Position numbers and translations under genes: made by a program. From assembly GCA_017618195.1 (NCBI GenBank), contig JAFZUW010000065.1:62001-126000 (forward strand): 64,000 nt of DNA. The letters are read 5' to 3'. This DNA comes from Lachnospiraceae bacterium. GTDB lineage: Bacteria; Bacillota; Clostridia; Lachnospirales; Lachnospiraceae. The notes beneath the pieces were generated by a model. It saw only the letters and a list, made by a program, of their open reading frames with translations. It did not search any database and was not told the DNA's origin. Of the stretch, positions 49,781-55,218 are shown piece by piece. Position 1 is the stretch's first letter, and the number at the start of each line of letters is the position of its first letter.

Positions 49781-49809
49781 CAAAAAACCGGGCGCCGAAG
49801 CACCCGGTT
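49781..49809 (-). terminator. Terminator of the cohesin gene
   Basis: AACCGGGCGC (49786-49795) and GCACCCGGTT (49800-49809) form a ten-base stem with one G-U pair. On the minus strand the loop is a UUCG tetraloop, followed by a run of six Ts. Confidence 0.9.
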
Positions 49810-49841: not shown

Positions 49842-51380
49842 TTACAGATAGTCGTCCGCGTCGTCGTAAAGGTCCGTATCGTCCGGTGCGAACCGTCTTG
49901 CGTAGCGTCCCTTCTGCACAAGGTAGAGGATCAGGAACACAAGCATCAGCACGAACAGCAGTCCCGCGGTACCCATCCACAGATAATCCGCAAACGTCTT
50001 TCCGCTCTTCGTGTCATCAGCGGCCATCGATGCCTTCTGCGGCTCGTCGTTCGATACCGCCTCGGTCGGCTCCGGCGTGGGCGTCGCGGTCGGCTCCGGG
50101 GTAGGCGTAGGCGTGGGAGTCGGAGTAGGCGTCGGGATCAGAGTCACGTCCTCGGTATTGAACCGCTGGAATGTACCAACGGTCGTATCCCACTGATACC
50201 ATCCGGCAATGCCCTTCACGTCCTTCGCATATACAAGCGCGTACTCGCTCGTCTCCGAGGAGATGTATGCGGTGATCTCCGTGCCGTTCAGATTCCGCAT
50301 GGTCTTCCGGTATCCGGTCGGAACGGTTACGTTGTCGTCCGCTTCCACCAGAACGATGCTCTGCTTCGGGTTATCGACTACCATGTAGCGGTAAGCGGTC
50401 CCCTTTTCCGTATCGAGAACGTACAGATTTCCGTCGGAAAATTCGACTACCGTGTCTCCGGTAACCAAATTCTTAAGGGCTTCTATCTTGCATTTCTTAT
50501 ATTCTACTGTTGTAGACTGCCAAACTTCCGTCTCTTCGAGGTACTTCGCGTCCGGCTTTCCGTTTACTTCAAGCTCGGTCTCGCCGACCTTTGCCTTAAC
50601 CGGCGGCGTAGGCGTCGGTGTAGGCGTCGCAGGCTTCGGTGTCGGAGCCTTTCCCCGGTTCACGGTAATGGTGTATGTTTTGGTCGTACTGCCGTCTTCG
50701 GCCGTAACCTTTACGGTAACGGTATTGTTACCTTCCTTGAGGTTATCGGTTCCGGATTTTACAACCTTTGCCTTTGCATCTTCGGGTTTTGCCGTAACCG
50801 TAACTTTTGTAACGGTACCGTCAACCGATGCCGTATAAGCAAGTGTCTCTTTGTTAAAGTCAGGGGAAATCTTCACTCCGCCGAGCGAGAGTTGCTCCAG
50901 ATACGCATTGTGAGACGCTTCCGGAGGAGCGGTAACGGTAATCGTTCCGTTACTTTTGTGAAGCGGAAAATCATTACCGATATTGAAATCCATCGGGCAT
51001 ACGACAACATCCGCTAAAGAAAGCGATGTAGTTCCCACTGCAAGAGCTTTAAAGGTAAACTCATAAGAGAATTTATCTGCTCCCGGATTCACCACTACAA
51101 TGCGGTTATTCGGATCACCTTTCTCAATATGATCACAAGCGCCGCTCACATATTCCAGTTTTGTTTTATCATAAACCAAAGTAAACTGGAACATAGCGAT
51201 TTCGCTCGTTGCGGAAACCTTAACCGTAACCGAAAACTCTTTCCCGACCTCCACAGATTTAGAACTTACCGAAACTGTTGCCGATTCCGCGGCATAGGCC
51301 GGTTTTACTCCGACAGTACCCGTAATCAAAACAATTATCAGCATGCAAACAATCGCTGATACTCTTTTCATACAGTGCAT
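49842..51380 (-). CDS. Membrane-anchored cohesin-domain surface protein
   Basis: 512 residues. A signal peptide (residues 1-30, ending KPAYA) precedes a cohesin domain at ~33-160 (ATVSVSSKSVEVGKEFSVTV, AMFQFTLVYDKTKLEYVSG, FEFTFKALAVGTTSLSLAD as approximate strands). A cadherin-like beta-sandwich at ~165-250 (YLEQLSLGGVKISPDFNKET) and a Thr-Pro linker follow, then an unassigned domain at ~275-400 and a second Thr-Pro linker. One C-terminal membrane helix (LLFVLMLVFLILYLV) comes before a basic patch and acidic tail. The start is ATG 51380, behind AAAGGA. It should display its cohesin on the cell surface to bind dockerins such as that of the next gene. No LPxTG motif is present. Confidence 0.85.
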   Translation of the reverse strand: MHCMKRVSAIVCMLIIVLITGTVGVKPAYAAESATVSVSSKSVEVGKEFSVTVKVSATSEIAMFQFTLVYDKTKLEYVSGACDHIEKGDPNNRIVVVNPGADKFSYEFTFKALAVGTTSLSLADVVVCPMDFNIGNDFPLHKSNGTITVTAPPEASHNAYLEQLSLGGVKISPDFNKETLAYTASVDGTVTKVTVTAKPEDAKAKVVKSGTDNLKEGNNTVTVKVTAEDGSTTKTYTITVNRGKAPTPKPATPTPTPTPPVKAKVGETELEVNGKPDAKYLEETEVWQSTTVEYKKCKIEALKNLVTGDTVVEFSDGNLYVLDTEKGTAYRYMVVDNPKQSIVLVEADDNVTVPTGYRKTMRNLNGTEITAYISSETSEYALVYAKDVKGIAGWYQWDTTVGTFQRFNTEDVTLIPTPTPTPTPTPTPEPTATPTPEPTEAVSNDEPQKASMAADDTKSGKTFADYLWMGTAGLLFVLMLVFLILYLVQKGRYARRFAPDDTDLYDDADDYL

Positions 51381-51454
51381 TTTATGACAATCCTTTCTCC
51401 CAACAGATTCCCCAGTGTTTTCTCTTCCCACAAAAAGACAATAAGCAAGGAAGC

Positions 51455-54289
51455 CTAATAAACCGTTTCTGCGGTTTTAGGCTGTTCAAGCAGCGAAACC
51501 CCAATCATATGCCTTTTGATATACAGCATATCGTAAATATCCGCCACCGAATCCGTTTTTACGTTTGCACCACGAAACGCCGCATCATCCAGCTGAATCA
51601 TATTCAGCATACTTCTCTTGATGTAAAGAAGATCATATATGGAAATCAATCCGTCTTTGTTCACATCGCCGTATATTACTACAACAAACTGATGTTTAGG
51701 CGTACAGATCTTATAACCGGTTCCGATTACCGCATCGTCCGCAACGGCCGTTCCGTCCGGATTCAAAATAGTAACTTCACCGCCTTCATCAACTTTAAAA
51801 TGCGTTTTAAACGCCGCTGCCGTTGTGGAAGGATCCACTCCGGTAATGTAACCGTCCTCTGAAAGAACATAAATAGTCCTGATATGCTCTACCGTCTCAA
51901 CCGGGTTGGCCGTTCCGGCGTTTGGATCGGTCGTGCCCGCGTTCGGATCGGTCGTACCCGCGTTCGGATCGGTCGTGCCCGCGTTCGGATCGGTCGTGCC
52001 CGCGTTCGGGTCGGTCGTACCGGCGTTCGGATCAGTTGTTCCGGCGTTCGGATCGGTCGTGCCCGCGTTCGGGTCGGTCGTGCCCGCATTCGGGTCGGTC
52101 GTGCCCGCGTTCGGGTTAGTTGTTCCGGCGTTCGGGTCGGTCGTGCCTGCGTTCGGGTCGGTCGTGCCCGCATTCGGGTCAGTTGTTCCGGCGTTCGGGT
52201 CAGTTGTTCCGGCGTTCGGATCGGTCGTGCCCGCATTCGGGTCGGGATTGTTATTCGGAATCGTAGGATTCACTTCCGGATTCTCTCCCGGAAGTTCACG
52301 ATAGATATTCAAAACATAGGTCACACTGTTACCGTATGCAGCCGTTGAGAGCACCTTGATCTCATTGAGACCGGGCTGAAGCTGTACGGTTCCGCTGCCG
52401 ACACTCGTCGTCGTCGCAAGCGGTACCGCATTTACTTTCACGGAAGCCGTCTCCGCACTTACGTTAACATCATACGTAAGCTGCCTGTAATCAAATCCGG
52501 GAGTAAGGCTGCAGCCTTCCACCTCGAGACTTGCGAGATACGGGTTCGGGTTCGCTTTGGAACCTCCTCCCGGATAAGGTGCCGGCGTATCGGACATATT
52601 CTCGTATACGGGAATCTTAAATGTCATAGCCGTATCAAGATCCGGACATGCCTTCCACATGGTTCTGGCCTCATTGGCCGGAGCCTGAATATTGGTCATA
52701 TACTGATGCGTATACTTGTTGCCTGCTGACACCGCGCTCGATACGTTAAACTTCTGGAAGTAAAGCGTATCCTGTCCTTTTTCTTTATATTCACGTCCGA
52801 CAAGAATTGCTCCGCCGTAAAGAGCCTTCCATCGTTTATTCCAAGGACGGACGGTCTCTTTGGCGCTCGCAAGATAGTTGCTTGCGCTCTTCGCTACATC
52901 GGCACTTCTGCTTGCGTAGAACAATCCCTTCGTGATGGCATCCGTCTTACCGTCTGCATAGGTATCAAAATCATAATAATTGTACAATCCGGGATACTTC
53001 GAATGCTTCCCGGAAATGATCAGCGAAGTTCCTTCCGAACCCATTTCCTGAATTATACGCGCAACAAGCATATCCGGATTTACACCGGAAATCTTGGCGG
53101 ATTCCAGAATCACGTATGCATAAGTAAGCGGGGTACCGCTCGTTGCTTCTACTGTATCAACACTTATTATTTTGCCCTTTTCATTGCGGTTAACCGTTTG
53201 TGAAGTCCACATGTACTCACCCGGGATATCACCGGCCATGAACGTTCCCTCAAGGAGCGCCTGTACGCGTTCAAGGGTATGAATCTGCTCGTCATAATCC
53301 GCCGTCTCAAACTGGAATACTTCCGACTCGGTCAGGAAGTTTCTCGGATCCATAAAGTATGCCGTCGCGGTACGATTCGCAGCATGCCAGTATTTGCCGT
53401 CCAGTCCCTTAAAACCGCCGTCAACATTGTCCGCATTTTTAAATGTGTATGAAAGATCATCAACCCACTTCCAGGACGTAGGGCTCGTATAATATACAAG
53501 GCTCTTCCCAAACTGACTCTCCGCATCCACTGAGGCATTCCAGTCAAGACCGGTTTTATCCGCAATAAACACCCAATTCGGATGCTGCGCATGCAGGATT
53601 CGTAAAGACTCGATATAAGAATCCGGGAATCCCTGTGCCTTCATCTGCGCAACGAACTCTTCATCGCCCGCGGGCGTCGTATACAAGCGCACGAAATCGG
53701 CATAAAGCCAACCGACTTTCTGCTCTCCGTCAATCATGATATTGCATTTGTAATAACCGTTCTGGTAAGCAAGCGCCTCCACACGGGTACCGTTGTTCAA
53801 GGTCACGTTCTGGCCGTTCTTGTCCTTCACCATTGCATAGTTCTGACCGGGGCCGGAGCGTACATTCGTTTCCGGTGAATAATCCACATAGGCAGGTCTC
53901 GGAGAAGCATAAGTCTCATTGGCCGGCTTCGGAGTGTAGATCTGAATATAATCCGCAAATCCGTAAGCCTCCGTCTGCGTACCGTTGTTGTTGAAACGGA
54001 TCTTGTACCATAACTTGCCGTTGGAGTATTTCTTCGTACCGAGCAGTTCCACGATGGTTCCGTTCGGAATCGGGGCAACCAAAGCAGAGGATGAACTTGC
54101 ATCCGCACGTGCGTTCAAAGCATCGGCAACATTGGCCGGTACATTAATCTTACCCATCTTCGGCTTCAAATACGTCTGTTCGTTCGCTGTTGCTGCAGAA
54201 GCACAGTTATCAAACGCCGTACCCGGTACAAGCGCAAAAAGAACCAGAATCAGAAGAACGGCCATTAAGCGTCTTCCCATCAGTCCCAT
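51455..54289 (-). CDS. Dockerin-bearing secreted glucosaminidase with SH3 and repeat linker
   Basis: 944 residues. A signal peptide (MGLMGRRLMAVLLILVLFAL) precedes two SH3b-like wall-binding domains (~35-105 and ~110-195). An endo-beta-N-acetylglucosaminidase (LytG/GH73-like) domain at ~205-545 has LVARIIQEMGSEGTSL around the probable catalytic Glu. A cadherin-like sandwich follows, then 16 heptapeptides of the TTDPNAG type. The C-terminus is a type I dockerin: first loop DVNKDGLISIYDLLYIKR complete; second loop ANVKTDSVADIYDMLYIKR lacking some calcium ligands. The start is ATG 54289, with AGGAGG seven bases upstream. The cohesin gene lies 74 bases downstream on the same strand, implying an interacting pair for wall remodelling. 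Confidence 0.88.
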   Translation of the reverse strand: MGLMGRRLMAVLLILVLFALVPGTAFDNCASAATANEQTYLKPKMGKINVPANVADALNARADASSSSALVAPIPNGTIVELLGTKKYSNGKLWYKIRFNNNGTQTEAYGFADYIQIYTPKPANETYASPRPAYVDYSPETNVRSGPGQNYAMVKDKNGQNVTLNNGTRVEALAYQNGYYKCNIMIDGEQKVGWLYADFVRLYTTPAGDEEFVAQMKAQGFPDSYIESLRILHAQHPNWVFIADKTGLDWNASVDAESQFGKSLVYYTSPTSWKWVDDLSYTFKNADNVDGGFKGLDGKYWHAANRTATAYFMDPRNFLTESEVFQFETADYDEQIHTLERVQALLEGTFMAGDIPGEYMWTSQTVNRNEKGKIISVDTVEATSGTPLTYAYVILESAKISGVNPDMLVARIIQEMGSEGTSLIISGKHSKYPGLYNYYDFDTYADGKTDAITKGLFYASRSADVAKSASNYLASAKETVRPWNKRWKALYGGAILVGREYKEKGQDTLYFQKFNVSSAVSAGNKYTHQYMTNIQAPANEARTMWKACPDLDTAMTFKIPVYENMSDTPAPYPGGGSKANPNPYLASLEVEGCSLTPGFDYRQLTYDVNVSAETASVKVNAVPLATTTSVGSGTVQLQPGLNEIKVLSTAAYGNSVTYVLNIYRELPGENPEVNPTIPNNNPDPNAGTTDPNAGTTDPNAGTTDPNAGTTDPNAGTTDPNAGTTNPNAGTTDPNAGTTDPNAGTTDPNAGTTDPNAGTTDPNAGTTDPNAGTTDPNAGTTDPNAGTTDPNAGTANPVETVEHIRTIYVLSEDGYITGVDPSTTAAAFKTHFKVDEGGEVTILNPDGTAVADDAVIGTGYKICTPKHQFVVVIYGDVNKDGLISIYDLLYIKRSMLNMIQLDDAAFRGANVKTDSVADIYDMLYIKRHMIGVSLLEQPKTAETVY
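51907..52242. repeat. 16-copy 21-bp tandem repeat encoding TTDPNAG
   Basis: On the + strand the unit is close to GTTCGGATCGGTCGTGCCCGC, given here in two parts as GTTCGGATCG and GTCGTGCCCGC. Copies differ mainly at synonymous positions (ggatcg/gggtcg, gcccgc/tccggc), and one copy changes Asp to Asn. The variants are shuffled, as expected after slippage or unequal recombination. It is a coding repeat, not a CRISPR array. Confidence 0.93.
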
Positions 54290-54330: not shown

Positions 54331-55170
54331 TTAATCGTTGTCCGTGTCGACCGTTCCCTCAAATACCGTTACGGCAGGGCCGGTCATGTAAATGATATCG
54401 TCCGCCTCATCGTAGCGGATCTGCAGGTCGCCGCCGAGCAGATGCACCGTTACCTCGGGACCCGTAAGTCCGTTCCGGTAGCAGGCAAATGCGGTCGCGC
54501 ACGCCCCCGTTCCGCACGCCCATGTTTCGCCGGAGCCTCGCTCCCATACCCGCATGGACACTTCGCGGTCGCTGATTTTCTTAACAAATTCGACATTGAC
54601 GCCTTCGGGAAACATCGGGCTCTTCTCAATCGGCTCACCGACCTTCTGAACCGGAAAATCCTTCGTCTCATCGACCATGATCACCGCATGGGGGTTACCC
54701 ATCGATACCGGAGTGAATTCCCACTCGCGTCCGTCGGACGTTACCTGATAGGTGTCCGCCTGTTCCTTTACAATTAACGGAAGGCTTTCCGGTTTCATAT
54801 CGGGATGACCCATGTTGACCGTTACGCTCTCCACCAGATTATTCTTTACGTGAAGGGACAGATACCTTATTCCTGCAGGCGTGTCCACCGCAAGTTCGAT
54901 TTTGTCCGTAAGGCGGTGGTCGTAGACGTATTTGCCTACGCAGCGGATTCCGTTGCCGCACATCTTACCGAGACTACCGTCCGCGTTGTACATCTCCATG
55001 AAGAAGTCGGCGCGGTCGCTCGGACGGATCAAGATCAGTCCGTCGCCGCCGATTCCGGTGTGGCGGTCACTCAATTTAACGGCAAGCGCAGGAGCATCCT
55101 TCAGATACTCCTTCGTGCAATCCACATATATATAATCGTTCGCACATCCGTGCATTTTCGTAAACTTCAT
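54331..55170 (-). CDS. dapF: Diaminopimelate epimerase
   Basis: 279 residues. The two catalytic cysteines are in MCGNGIRCVGKYVYD and TWACGTGACATAFAC, with the N-terminal MHGCANDYIYVD and the RHTGIGGDGLILI loop typical of DapF. It converts LL- to meso-diaminopimelate for lysine and peptidoglycan. The start is ATG 55170 with GGAG six bases upstream; an in-frame GTG two codons earlier is inside that site. It has a full-consensus promoter at 55219-55247. It lies upstream of the dockerin hydrolase gene, 41 bases apart, so the two may be partly co-transcribed. Confidence 0.96.
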   Translation of the reverse strand: MKFTKMHGCANDYIYVDCTKEYLKDAPALAVKLSDRHTGIGGDGLILIRPSDRADFFMEMYNADGSLGKMCGNGIRCVGKYVYDHRLTDKIELAVDTPAGIRYLSLHVKNNLVESVTVNMGHPDMKPESLPLIVKEQADTYQVTSDGREWEFTPVSMGNPHAVIMVDETKDFPVQKVGEPIEKSPMFPEGVNVEFVKKISDREVSMRVWERGSGETWACGTGACATAFACYRNGLTGPEVTVHLLGGDLQIRYDEADDIIYMTGPAVTVFEGTVDTDND

Positions 55171-55218
55171 ATTCACTCCGCTTGATGCGACACTACGGCA
55201 TTTTAAGTTTGGATATTT

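What the first reader, a model, noticed from the sequence alone, without database searches (positions are those of the whole stretch)
49842..54289. Adjacent cohesin anchor and dockerin-tagged wall hydrolase: a possible two-protein surface machine not built for cellulose
A membrane-anchored cohesin protein (49842-51380) sits 74 bases downstream of a dockerin-ended glucosaminidase with SH3 domains (51455-54289), on the same strand. Cohesin-dockerin pairs are best known in cellulosomes, where dockerins carry plant-wall enzymes. Here the cargo is a peptidoglycan hydrolase, both proteins carry cadherin-like sandwiches, and dapF sits immediately upstream. A simple reading is that the cell tethers a wall-remodelling enzyme at its own surface through a cohesin-dockerin clasp. 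The dockerin's second loop is degenerate, so the binding mode may differ from classical type I.
Basis: partly seen in the sequence, partly recalled or inferred. Interest (0 to 1): 0.75.

Follow-up and report, generated by a model that had tools for sequence, protein, structure and literature searches.

The report
Cohesin-dockerin clasp for wall hydrolase
A lock-and-key protein pair known from cellulose-digesting machines seems here to hold one wall-cutting enzyme of the bacterium at its own membrane, and the same two-gene arrangement recurs in dozens of related genera, sometimes with the key missing.

Summary
In detail: a membrane-anchored cohesin protein (49842-51380) lies 74 nt downstream of a secreted hydrolase ending in a dockerin (51455-54289). 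It is not incidental. In the genus 18 of 22 genomes show the adjacent pair, 3 are cut by contig ends, and one nearly complete genome lacks both dockerin and cohesin gene here. In 299 family genomes, 45 of the 48 with the strongest X-dockerin hits outside the genus have a cohesin hit or a member of the anchor family directly downstream. In 14 of 20 such genomes it is the only dockerin found. The enzyme is GH73-like by profile, and the two dockerin halves vary in concert, as a working dockerin should. Best reading: a one-to-one clasp that tethers a peptidoglycan glucosaminidase at the membrane, working like SagB-SpdC of Staphylococcus aureus. Against a simple clasp: half of the family genomes lack the cohesin profile; 38 of 79 anchors examined have no dockerin protein beside them; in 13 genomes no such hydrolase was found. 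In one dockerin-less clade a short C-terminal strand stands in the dockerin's place (14 of 17). The degenerate second loop is a drift of this genus. New variant of a known kind.

The parts
51455..54289 (-). dockerin-bearing GH73-like glucosaminidase, 944 aa
   Evidence: ORF; domains
54191..54289 (-). signal-peptide-like N-terminus of the hydrolase
   Evidence: read from the sequence, coordinates
53945..54124 (-). bacterial SH3 domain
   Evidence: Pfam PF08239 43.2 bits; coordinates
52520..53674 (-). catalytic region, GH73-like; putative catalytic Glu415 at 53045-53047, invariant in the 27-row alignment A3
52295..52534 (-). cadherin-like beta-sandwich of the hydrolase
   Evidence: Pfam PF12733 35.7 bits; coordinates
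51914..52249 (-). repetitive linker, 16 copies of PNAG in TDPNAGT repeats
51680..51877 (-). X module in front of the dockerin, conserved in the genus
   Evidence: alignment A2, coordinates
51482..51673 (-). dockerin; loop 1 canonical (51632-51667), loop 2 with Lys at position 3 (51530-51565)
49842..51380 (-). membrane-anchored cohesin protein, 512 aa, signal-peptide-like start 51288-51380
50925..51296 (-). cohesin domain
   Evidence: Pfam PF00963; profile A1 matches solved cohesins 1g1k, 2vn5
50655..50867 (-). cadherin-like beta-sandwich of the anchor
   Evidence: Pfam PF12733 58.6 bits; coordinates
50181..50594 (-). MID domain: conserved region of the anchor family, no Pfam match here or in the 7 related anchors scanned
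49845..49994 (-). transmembrane segment and short acidic cytoplasmic tail (ends YDDADDYL)
   Evidence: read from the sequence
54331..55176 (-). dapF, first gene of the probable three-gene unit
   Evidence: Pfam PF01678 206.9 bits
55219..55247 (-). promoter-like site matching the sigma-70 consensus in 12 of 12 positions, upstream of dapF
   Evidence: pattern match only
49786..49809 (-). terminator-like hairpin, 10 pairs then TTTT, just after the cohesin gene
   Evidence: pattern match only

Best explanation
A dedicated one-to-one clasp. The GH73-like glucosaminidase is secreted, and the dockerin at the end of its long repetitive linker is gripped by the single cohesin of the membrane protein made from the next gene. 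The enzyme is thereby held at the outer face of the membrane, within reach of new peptidoglycan, and cuts glycan strands there. It works like the SagB-SpdC pair of Staphylococcus aureus, a membrane protein that holds and orients a glucosaminidase, but with a cohesin-dockerin joint. Shown by computation: domain relations, gene order, conservation, dockerin symmetry, joint absence in one species. Inferred: export, membrane topology, catalytic activity, cohesin-dockerin binding, effect on the wall.
For: Genus: 18 of 22 genomes (own included) show the adjacent pair, 3 are cut by contig ends (G014, G015, G017), 1 lacks it. That one, G012 (98% complete), lacks the dockerin on its hydrolase, the cohesin gene at this place and any PF00404 match at E<=0.01; its one PF00963 match is in a 1592-codon frame on C23. 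Family: of the 48 genomes outside the genus whose best X-dockerin hit has E<=1e-12, 41 have a cohesin hit downstream on the same strand, 40 of them 91-216 nt away and one 484 nt, and 4 more (G312, G267, G143, G286) have a divergent member of the anchor family there. Dedication: exactly one PF00404 dockerin in 10 of the 19 dockerin-bearing genus genomes; in 14 of 20 pair genomes elsewhere the pair's dockerin is the only one found at E<=0.001. The recognition segments of the two dockerin halves vary together: identity 0.73 within a protein, 0.28 between proteins, 0 of 10,000 shuffles as high, 40 genomes; shared residues use the same codon in only 157 of 309 cases, 0.51 against 0.44 expected, so recent copying is not the cause. 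In G277 the 11 other dockerins have, by eye, other recognition segments than the hydrolase. G013 and G019 carry further adjacent dockerin-cargo/cohesin pairs, with leucine-rich-repeat and, in G013, ricin-lectin/Flg_new cargo. In G286 the dockerin sits inside the catalytic region, yet the anchor is still next door. A 12-of-12 promoter match before dapF and a ten-pair hairpin after the cohesin gene bracket dapF-hydrolase-cohesin.
Against: No complex or fold could be predicted. Dockerin and cohesin distances do not correlate beyond those of the flanking domains (partial Mantel r 0.08, 573 of 5000 permutations as high; 33 of the 40 pairs, those with all four domains), while catalytic domain and cohesin do (r 0.37, 0 of 5000). 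The cohesin profile matches only 152 of 299 family genomes. Of 79 anchors examined, 24 stand next to the hydrolase without a dockerin and 15 have none directly upstream, though one of these (first anchor of L175) has a dockerin hydrolase downstream. Of 20 genomes of these kinds 14 show no PF00404 dockerin; of 14 with no hydrolase beside the anchor 13 show no such hydrolase at E<=1e-5. So the anchor has some job that needs no dockerin. Loop 2 of this dockerin has Lys at a calcium-ligand position. PF00404 can miss a pair's dockerin (G146), so single-dockerin counts are approximate.
Confidence: 0.7

Rival explanations
1. The membrane protein is primarily an envelope adaptor whose outer head is a cohesin-like fold, whose MID domain and cytoplasmic tail do the main work, and the dockerin is one of several ways to bring cargo to it. 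In other lineages it serves the hydrolase without dockerin, or a LytR-CpsA-Psr wall-polymer ligase. This can be true together with the clasp.
For: 38 of 79 anchors without a dockerin protein beside them; LytR-CpsA-Psr protein next to it in L184 (PF03816 3.8e-35), with like-looking neighbours in L187, L188, L190, L195, L201 (by eye); the tail end carries an acidic-aromatic-D-L motif in 47 of 69 long tails against 102 of 843 control windows (pattern chosen after seeing the data); catalytic domain and cohesin distances correlate.
Against: Does not by itself explain why the dockerin of so many genomes sits exactly beside the cohesin, nor the joint absence in G012.
Confidence: 0.45
2. A mini-cellulosome or general surface station: the one cohesin anchors any dockerin protein of the cell, including the three SGNH hydrolases of this genome.
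For: 4 dockerins but 1 cohesin in this genome; 12 dockerins in G277, where the cohesin profile matches once. The Hungate1000 paper proposes a single surface cohesin of this kind for Ruminococcus albus (PMC6118326, passages).
Against: By eye the SGNH dockerins have quite different recognition segments (ALAVLRIAAKL against LLYIKRSML); so have those of G277. Many genomes have one dockerin only. No plant-wall enzyme among the four here.
Confidence: 0.15
3. No clasp: the cohesin and dockerin folds are relics or structural modules, adjacent because both genes belong to a wall operon.
For: No dockerin-cohesin covariation beyond background; cohesins without dockerins exist; this genus's loop 2 is degenerate.
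Against: Concerted variation of the two dockerin halves across 40 genomes, all five loop 1 ligand positions filled in 40 of 40 family and 17 of 19 genus sequences, second adjacent pairs with other cargo in G013 and G019.
Confidence: 0.15

Closest known systems
Type I cohesin-dockerin pairs of cellulosomes (Clostridium thermocellum, Ruminiclostridium)
   Same: cohesin by profile (1g1k 8.2e-6) and dockerin with two calcium-loop repeats (2ccl 1e-13); the enzyme carries the dockerin
   Different: one cohesin, one enzyme, no scaffoldin found, cargo is a GH73-like wall hydrolase, anchor is a membrane protein
SagB-SpdC of Staphylococcus aureus
   Same: a glucosaminidase held by a membrane protein that scaffolds and orients it (PMC10581084, passages); the best sequence match of the catalytic profile is 6u0o_B, listed as LYZ2 domain-containing protein and, from recall, SagB in the SagB-SpdC structure
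   Different: SpdC is described as a CAAX-protease homolog and no cohesin or dockerin is involved; SagB is itself membrane-associated
Single surface cohesin of Ruminococcus albus; amylosome of R. bromii; mucinolysome of Limousia
   Same: cohesin-dockerin joints outside classical cellulosomes (PMC6118326 passages; PMC12997984 passages and section 19)
   Different: those serve several dockerin enzymes that degrade outside polysaccharides; here one enzyme for the cell's own wall
Clostridium perfringens cohesin/dockerin glycosidases
   Same: non-cellulosomal single-cohesin joints (as told in PMC12997984 passages)
   Different: there the cohesin proteins are themselves glycoside hydrolases and the targets are host glycans; no membrane anchor family is mentioned in the passages seen

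Membership tests
cohesin (PF00963) | profile match over the curated cut-off | tested here: met
   30.7 bits, cut-off 24.1; A1 profile matches solved cohesins
cohesin (PF00963) | nine-stranded jelly-roll fold with 8-3-6-5 binding face (recalled) | not testable with these tools
   structure prediction switched off
type I dockerin (PF00404) | profile match over the curated cut-off | tested here: inconclusive
   26.9 bits in the genome search, over it; 21.3 bits on the whole protein, just under 22.9; relatives up to 65.9 bits
type I dockerin (PF00404) | two calcium loops D-x-[DN]-x-[DN]-G-x-x-[DNS]-x-x-D (motif recalled) | tested here: inconclusive
   loop 1 met; loop 2 has K at position 3 here and K/R in 16 of 19 genus rows, but only in 6 of 40 family rows
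type I dockerin (PF00404) | two similar cohesin-binding faces (dual binding mode; abstract of PMC5429695 in the listing) | tested here: met
   sequence symmetry only: 0.73 identity within, 0.28 between proteins, 40 genomes; binding not tested
type I dockerin (PF00404) | calcium-dependent binding to a cohesin | not testable with these tools
   needs purified proteins
cellulosome | scaffoldin with several cohesins | tested here: not met
   one PF00963 match in the genome
cellulosome | several dockerin-bearing plant-wall enzymes | tested here: not met
   4 dockerins: one on the GH73-like enzyme, three on SGNH/GDSL proteins
GH73 glucosaminidase | sequence relation to solved GH73 enzymes (their GH73 status recalled) | tested here: met
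   A3 profile matches 6 distinct sequences, 4.3e-22 to 1.1e-15; Pfam PF01832 matched only 1 of 27 members
GH73 glucosaminidase | catalytic glutamate kept (role recalled) | tested here: met
   invariant in A3 (E210) and aligned with a Glu of 6u0o_B
GH73 glucosaminidase | cleavage of peptidoglycan | not testable with these tools
   needs an assay
SagB-SpdC system | SpdC-like CAAX-protease membrane partner | tested here: not met
   the partner has cohesin and cadherin-like domains by Pfam and no protease family

The most novel reading that the evidence does not exclude
The membrane protein is a widespread transmembrane receptor for wall enzymes whose cohesin-like head takes interchangeable C-terminal keys: a dockerin in many genera, a short beta-strand peptide (such as GGSNVTIVP) in one dockerin-less clade, and whose conserved acidic tail end passes on inside the cell whether the enzyme is docked. 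Cohesin-dockerin joints would then be one solution in a general system that places and controls wall hydrolases, not an offshoot of cellulosomes.
Probability: 0.25. Interest if true: 0.87.

Novelty: new variant of a known kind. Interest (0 to 1): 0.72.

Why it matters
Cohesins and dockerins are read in surveys as signs of cellulosome-like polymer digestion; a 2026 paper states that their co-presence in a genome signifies such complexes (PMC12997984, section 19). Here a one-to-one pair seems to serve the cell's own wall, in many genera of one family, which would change how such genes are annotated. It also gives a natural, testable tether for an enzyme that could harm the cell that makes it, a possible counterpart of SagB-SpdC, and a set of natural experiments (joint absence, dockerin absence, replacement of the key).

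Tried and rejected
Rejected: chance adjacency; a cellulosome in this genome (one cohesin, no plant-wall dockerin enzyme); split dockerin genes in relatives, first suspected from stop codons in the table: in the loci with a whole gene the dockerin is in one ORF with the catalytic region; recent gene conversion as the cause of dockerin symmetry.

The class without dockerin may hide dockerins too diverged for my profile; the C-termini of its 24 hydrolases were read and none seen (that of G093 ends early). G232's strong dockerin hit is on another kind of protein; G185's was not fetched. The first anchor of L175 is labelled 'none' in the tree although a dockerin hydrolase lies downstream of it; this adds one change. 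In G134 the dockerin protein beside the anchor did not match my catalytic profile.

Literature: eight searches on cohesin and dockerin (listings capped at 20 of 48 and 25 of 42) and one on SagB in the open-licence library. Among the listed titles and abstract starts, and in the passages read of nine papers (PMC12997984 twice), I saw no cohesin-dockerin pair for a peptidoglycan hydrolase; eight of those papers were read by passages and none whole. PMC2914790 says that Butyrivibrio proteoclasticus has no dockerin on its secreted polysaccharide-degrading enzymes and lacks scaffoldin/cohesin parts (passages); PMC6785717 counts 80 cohesin proteins in 4,941 rumen genomes (passages), far fewer per genome than my profile finds in this family. 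Subscription papers are not covered. I recall, but did not see, a 2009 review of non-cellulosomal cohesin and dockerin modules.

Full report
What is there. On the minus strand lie, in order of transcription, dapF (54331-55176), a 944-residue hydrolase (51455-54289) and a 512-residue membrane protein (49842-51380). The hydrolase has a signal-peptide-like start, an SH3 domain, a large catalytic region, a cadherin-like domain, a linker with 16 PNAG repeats, an X module and a dockerin. The membrane protein has a signal-peptide-like start, a cohesin domain, a cadherin-like domain, a conserved region without Pfam match that I call MID, one membrane span and a short acidic tail. A promoter-like site with 12 of 12 consensus matches stands before dapF, and a ten-pair hairpin with a T run stands after the cohesin gene. 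These are pattern matches (7 promoter-like sites found, 7.1 expected; 15 terminator-like, 7.3 expected) and no proof, but the two best ones fit one transcription unit of three genes, with the M16 peptidase gene outside it.

What the enzyme is. Pfam's glucosaminidase model does not see it and matches 1 of 27 relatives, but a profile of those 27 finds six distinct sequences of solved structures: 6u0o_B (4.3e-22), 6fxp, 6fxo (bifunctional autolysin), 4pi7 and 4pi8 (autolysin E) and 5wqw (N-acetylglucosaminidase). That 6u0o_B and 6fxp are SagB, and that these are GH73 enzymes, is recalled. A glutamate in the motif IIQEMG is invariant in the alignment and stands opposite a Glu of 6u0o_B. The enzyme is therefore GH73-like; activity is inferred.

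Own genome. The genome (98.77% complete) has one cohesin and four dockerins at these thresholds. The other three dockerins end three tandem SGNH/GDSL-fn3 proteins on another contig. By eye their recognition segments differ strongly from that of the hydrolase.

Genus. Of 22 genomes (own included), 18 show the dockerin hydrolase and the cohesin anchor side by side on one strand, three are cut by contig ends (G014, G015, G017) and one, G012, lacks both. G012 (98% complete) has a 1184-residue hydrolase with another C-terminal part and no dockerin, no anchor between it and the M16 peptidase gene, and no PF00404 match at E<=0.01; its single PF00963 match lies in a long frame elsewhere. By PF00404, 10 of the 19 dockerin-bearing genomes have exactly one; by PF00963, 17 of the 19 cohesin-bearing genomes have exactly one. 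G013 and G019 have further adjacent dockerin-cohesin pairs in the same order: in G013 a ricin-lectin/Flg_new protein ending in a dockerin, and in both genomes a leucine-rich-repeat protein ending in a dockerin, each before a cohesin protein. Two of these cohesin proteins that I read to the end (L127, L128) close with what looks by eye like a sortase signal.

Family. In a draw of 299 genomes (298 genera) the cohesin profile A1 matches in 152 and the X-dockerin profile A2 in 91; about half of the family thus shows no such cohesin. Of the 48 genomes outside the genus whose best A2 hit has E<=1e-12, 41 have an A1 hit on the same strand within 1500 nt downstream, 40 of them at 91-216 nt and one (G151) at 484 nt (coordinates typed from the tables). 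Of the other seven, G312, G267, G143 and G286 have a divergent anchor directly downstream; G238 has its two hits at the ends of two contigs; G232 carries its dockerin on another protein; G185 was not fetched. Weaker A2 hits are adjacent less often: 5 of 9 at 1e-12 to 1e-10, and 2 of 12 that I entered at 1e-10 to 1e-7, not all of that range. I fetched 80 loci, chosen in part because they had or lacked an A2 hit, so the following are not frequencies. They hold 79 anchors: 40 with a dockerin protein directly upstream (39 of these match the catalytic profile), 24 with the hydrolase but no dockerin, 15 with neither upstream, of which one (first anchor of L175) has a dockerin hydrolase downstream. 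So 38 have no dockerin protein beside them. Gaps between hydrolase and anchor genes are under 100 nt in 39 of 40 and 23 of 24 cases. In G286 the dockerin lies inside the catalytic region and the anchor is still next door. At order level the MID profile matches 26 of 295 genomes: 20 in this family, 5 in a second, 1 weakly in a third.

Is the dockerin alive? Loop 1 has all five ligand positions filled in 40 of 40 family and 17 of 19 genus sequences; loop 2 in 25 of 40 and 2 of 19. Position 3 of loop 2 is Lys or Arg in 16 of 19 genus rows against 6 of 40 family rows. The two recognition segments within one dockerin are 0.73 identical, against 0.28 between proteins, with 0 of 10,000 shuffles as high (40 genomes). 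Codons at shared residues agree in 157 of 309 cases (0.51; 0.44 expected from the genes' own usage), so this is not recent copying. Halves that change together are what a dockerin with two equivalent binding faces should show. In G277, with 12 dockerins, the hydrolase's segment differs by eye from the 11 others.

Evidence against a simple clasp. Dockerin and cohesin distances are not correlated beyond the catalytic and MID domains (r 0.08; 573 of 5000 permutations as high; 33 of the 40 pairs, those with all four domains found), whereas catalytic domain and cohesin are (r 0.37; 0 of 5000). Twenty pair genomes and 20 dockerin-less ones were censused with PF00404 at E<=0.001: in 14 of the first the pair's dockerin is the only one, in 14 of the second there is none. 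In G146 the pair's own dockerin was missed by PF00404, so these counts are approximate. Of 14 genomes whose anchor has no hydrolase beside it, 13 show no such hydrolase at E<=1e-5; in G179 it lies elsewhere with a dockerin. In one such genome the neighbour is a LytR-CpsA-Psr protein; five more look alike by eye. On a tree of 85 anchors the dockerin state needs 5 changes (shuffled mean 27.8, 0 of 500 as low), with dockerin rows on both sides of the dockerin-less groups, which fits old dockerins lost in a few clades; but this is a quick tree with five long branches and no known root. The anchor thus does something without dockerins as well.

What stands in the dockerin's place. In the larger dockerin-less clade (17 rows) most hydrolases end in a glycine-serine-rich tail closed by a short hydrophobic strand such as GGSNVTIVP: 14 of 17 have the pattern in the last 14 residues, against 2 of 119 control windows in the same tails. 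One member of the clade, G303, ends in a dockerin instead. The anchors' cytoplasmic tails end in an acidic-aromatic motif in 47 of 69 long tails, against 102 of 843 control windows. Both patterns were chosen after seeing the sequences. They suggest, without showing it, that the anchor head accepts more than one kind of key and that the tail has a partner inside.

Mechanism. I take the pair as a clasp that holds a glucosaminidase at the membrane. The nearest working model is SagB-SpdC, where a membrane protein scaffolds a glucosaminidase for cutting strands to length (PMC10581084, passages). Shown here: domain relations, gene order, conservation, dockerin symmetry. Inferred: export, topology, binding, catalysis, wall effect.

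Place among known things. It is no cellulosome: scaffoldin and plant-wall dockerin enzymes were tested and not met. Cohesin membership is met by profile; dockerin membership is borderline by Pfam score on the whole protein, clear in relatives, with one degenerate loop. It works like, but is not a member of, the SagB-SpdC system. The Hungate1000 paper sorts Clostridiales into four cohesin/dockerin classes, none of which is one cohesin with one dockerin (passages); a 2024 survey lists single-cohesin proteins of unknown function and anchors with a C-terminal membrane helix (PMC11557425, passages). The searches made found no report of this pair (listed, with their caps, in Tried and rejected).

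Noticed in passing
L006:5729-9865 (own genome, contig C74): Three tandem SGNH/GDSL-fn3-dockerin proteins of about 450 aa with a recognition segment unlike that of the hydrolase; the genome's one cohesin match lies on another contig.
   Followed up: partly
C-termini of anchors in L162-L241: Acidic cytoplasmic tails often end in an acidic-aromatic motif such as DDDFEFMDLDD, in genomes with and without dockerin (47 of 69 long tails).
   Followed up: partly
hydrolases of the dockerin-less clade, e.g. L183:4566-6632, L185:4565-6817: In place of the dockerin a glycine-serine-rich tail closed by a short hydrophobic strand such as GGSNVTIVP (14 of 17).
   Followed up: partly
L204:237-2465: Dockerin inserted in the middle of the catalytic region of the hydrolase, with the anchor still next door.
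   Followed up: partly
L184:2791-5799; by eye also L187, L188, L190, L195, L201: Anchor of the same family next to a LytR-CpsA-Psr wall-polymer ligase instead of the hydrolase.
   Followed up: partly
L175:2268-8118: Two anchors flank one dockerin hydrolase (anchor - hydrolase - anchor).
   Followed up: no
L128:3168-8399 and L129:3003-7787: A resolvase-like gene (by eye) precedes the leucine-rich-repeat dockerin/cohesin pair in both G013 and G019, which may have moved as a unit.
   Followed up: no
L098:9024-12578: Hydrolase of G012 with three SH3 domains and an unnamed C-terminal part of about 300 residues in place of linker, X module and dockerin.
   Followed up: no
window 50181-50594: MID domain: found in 76 of 79 anchors examined, 18-30% identical to the window's in the 19 others aligned, no Pfam match in the window's anchor or the 7 others scanned.
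   Followed up: partly
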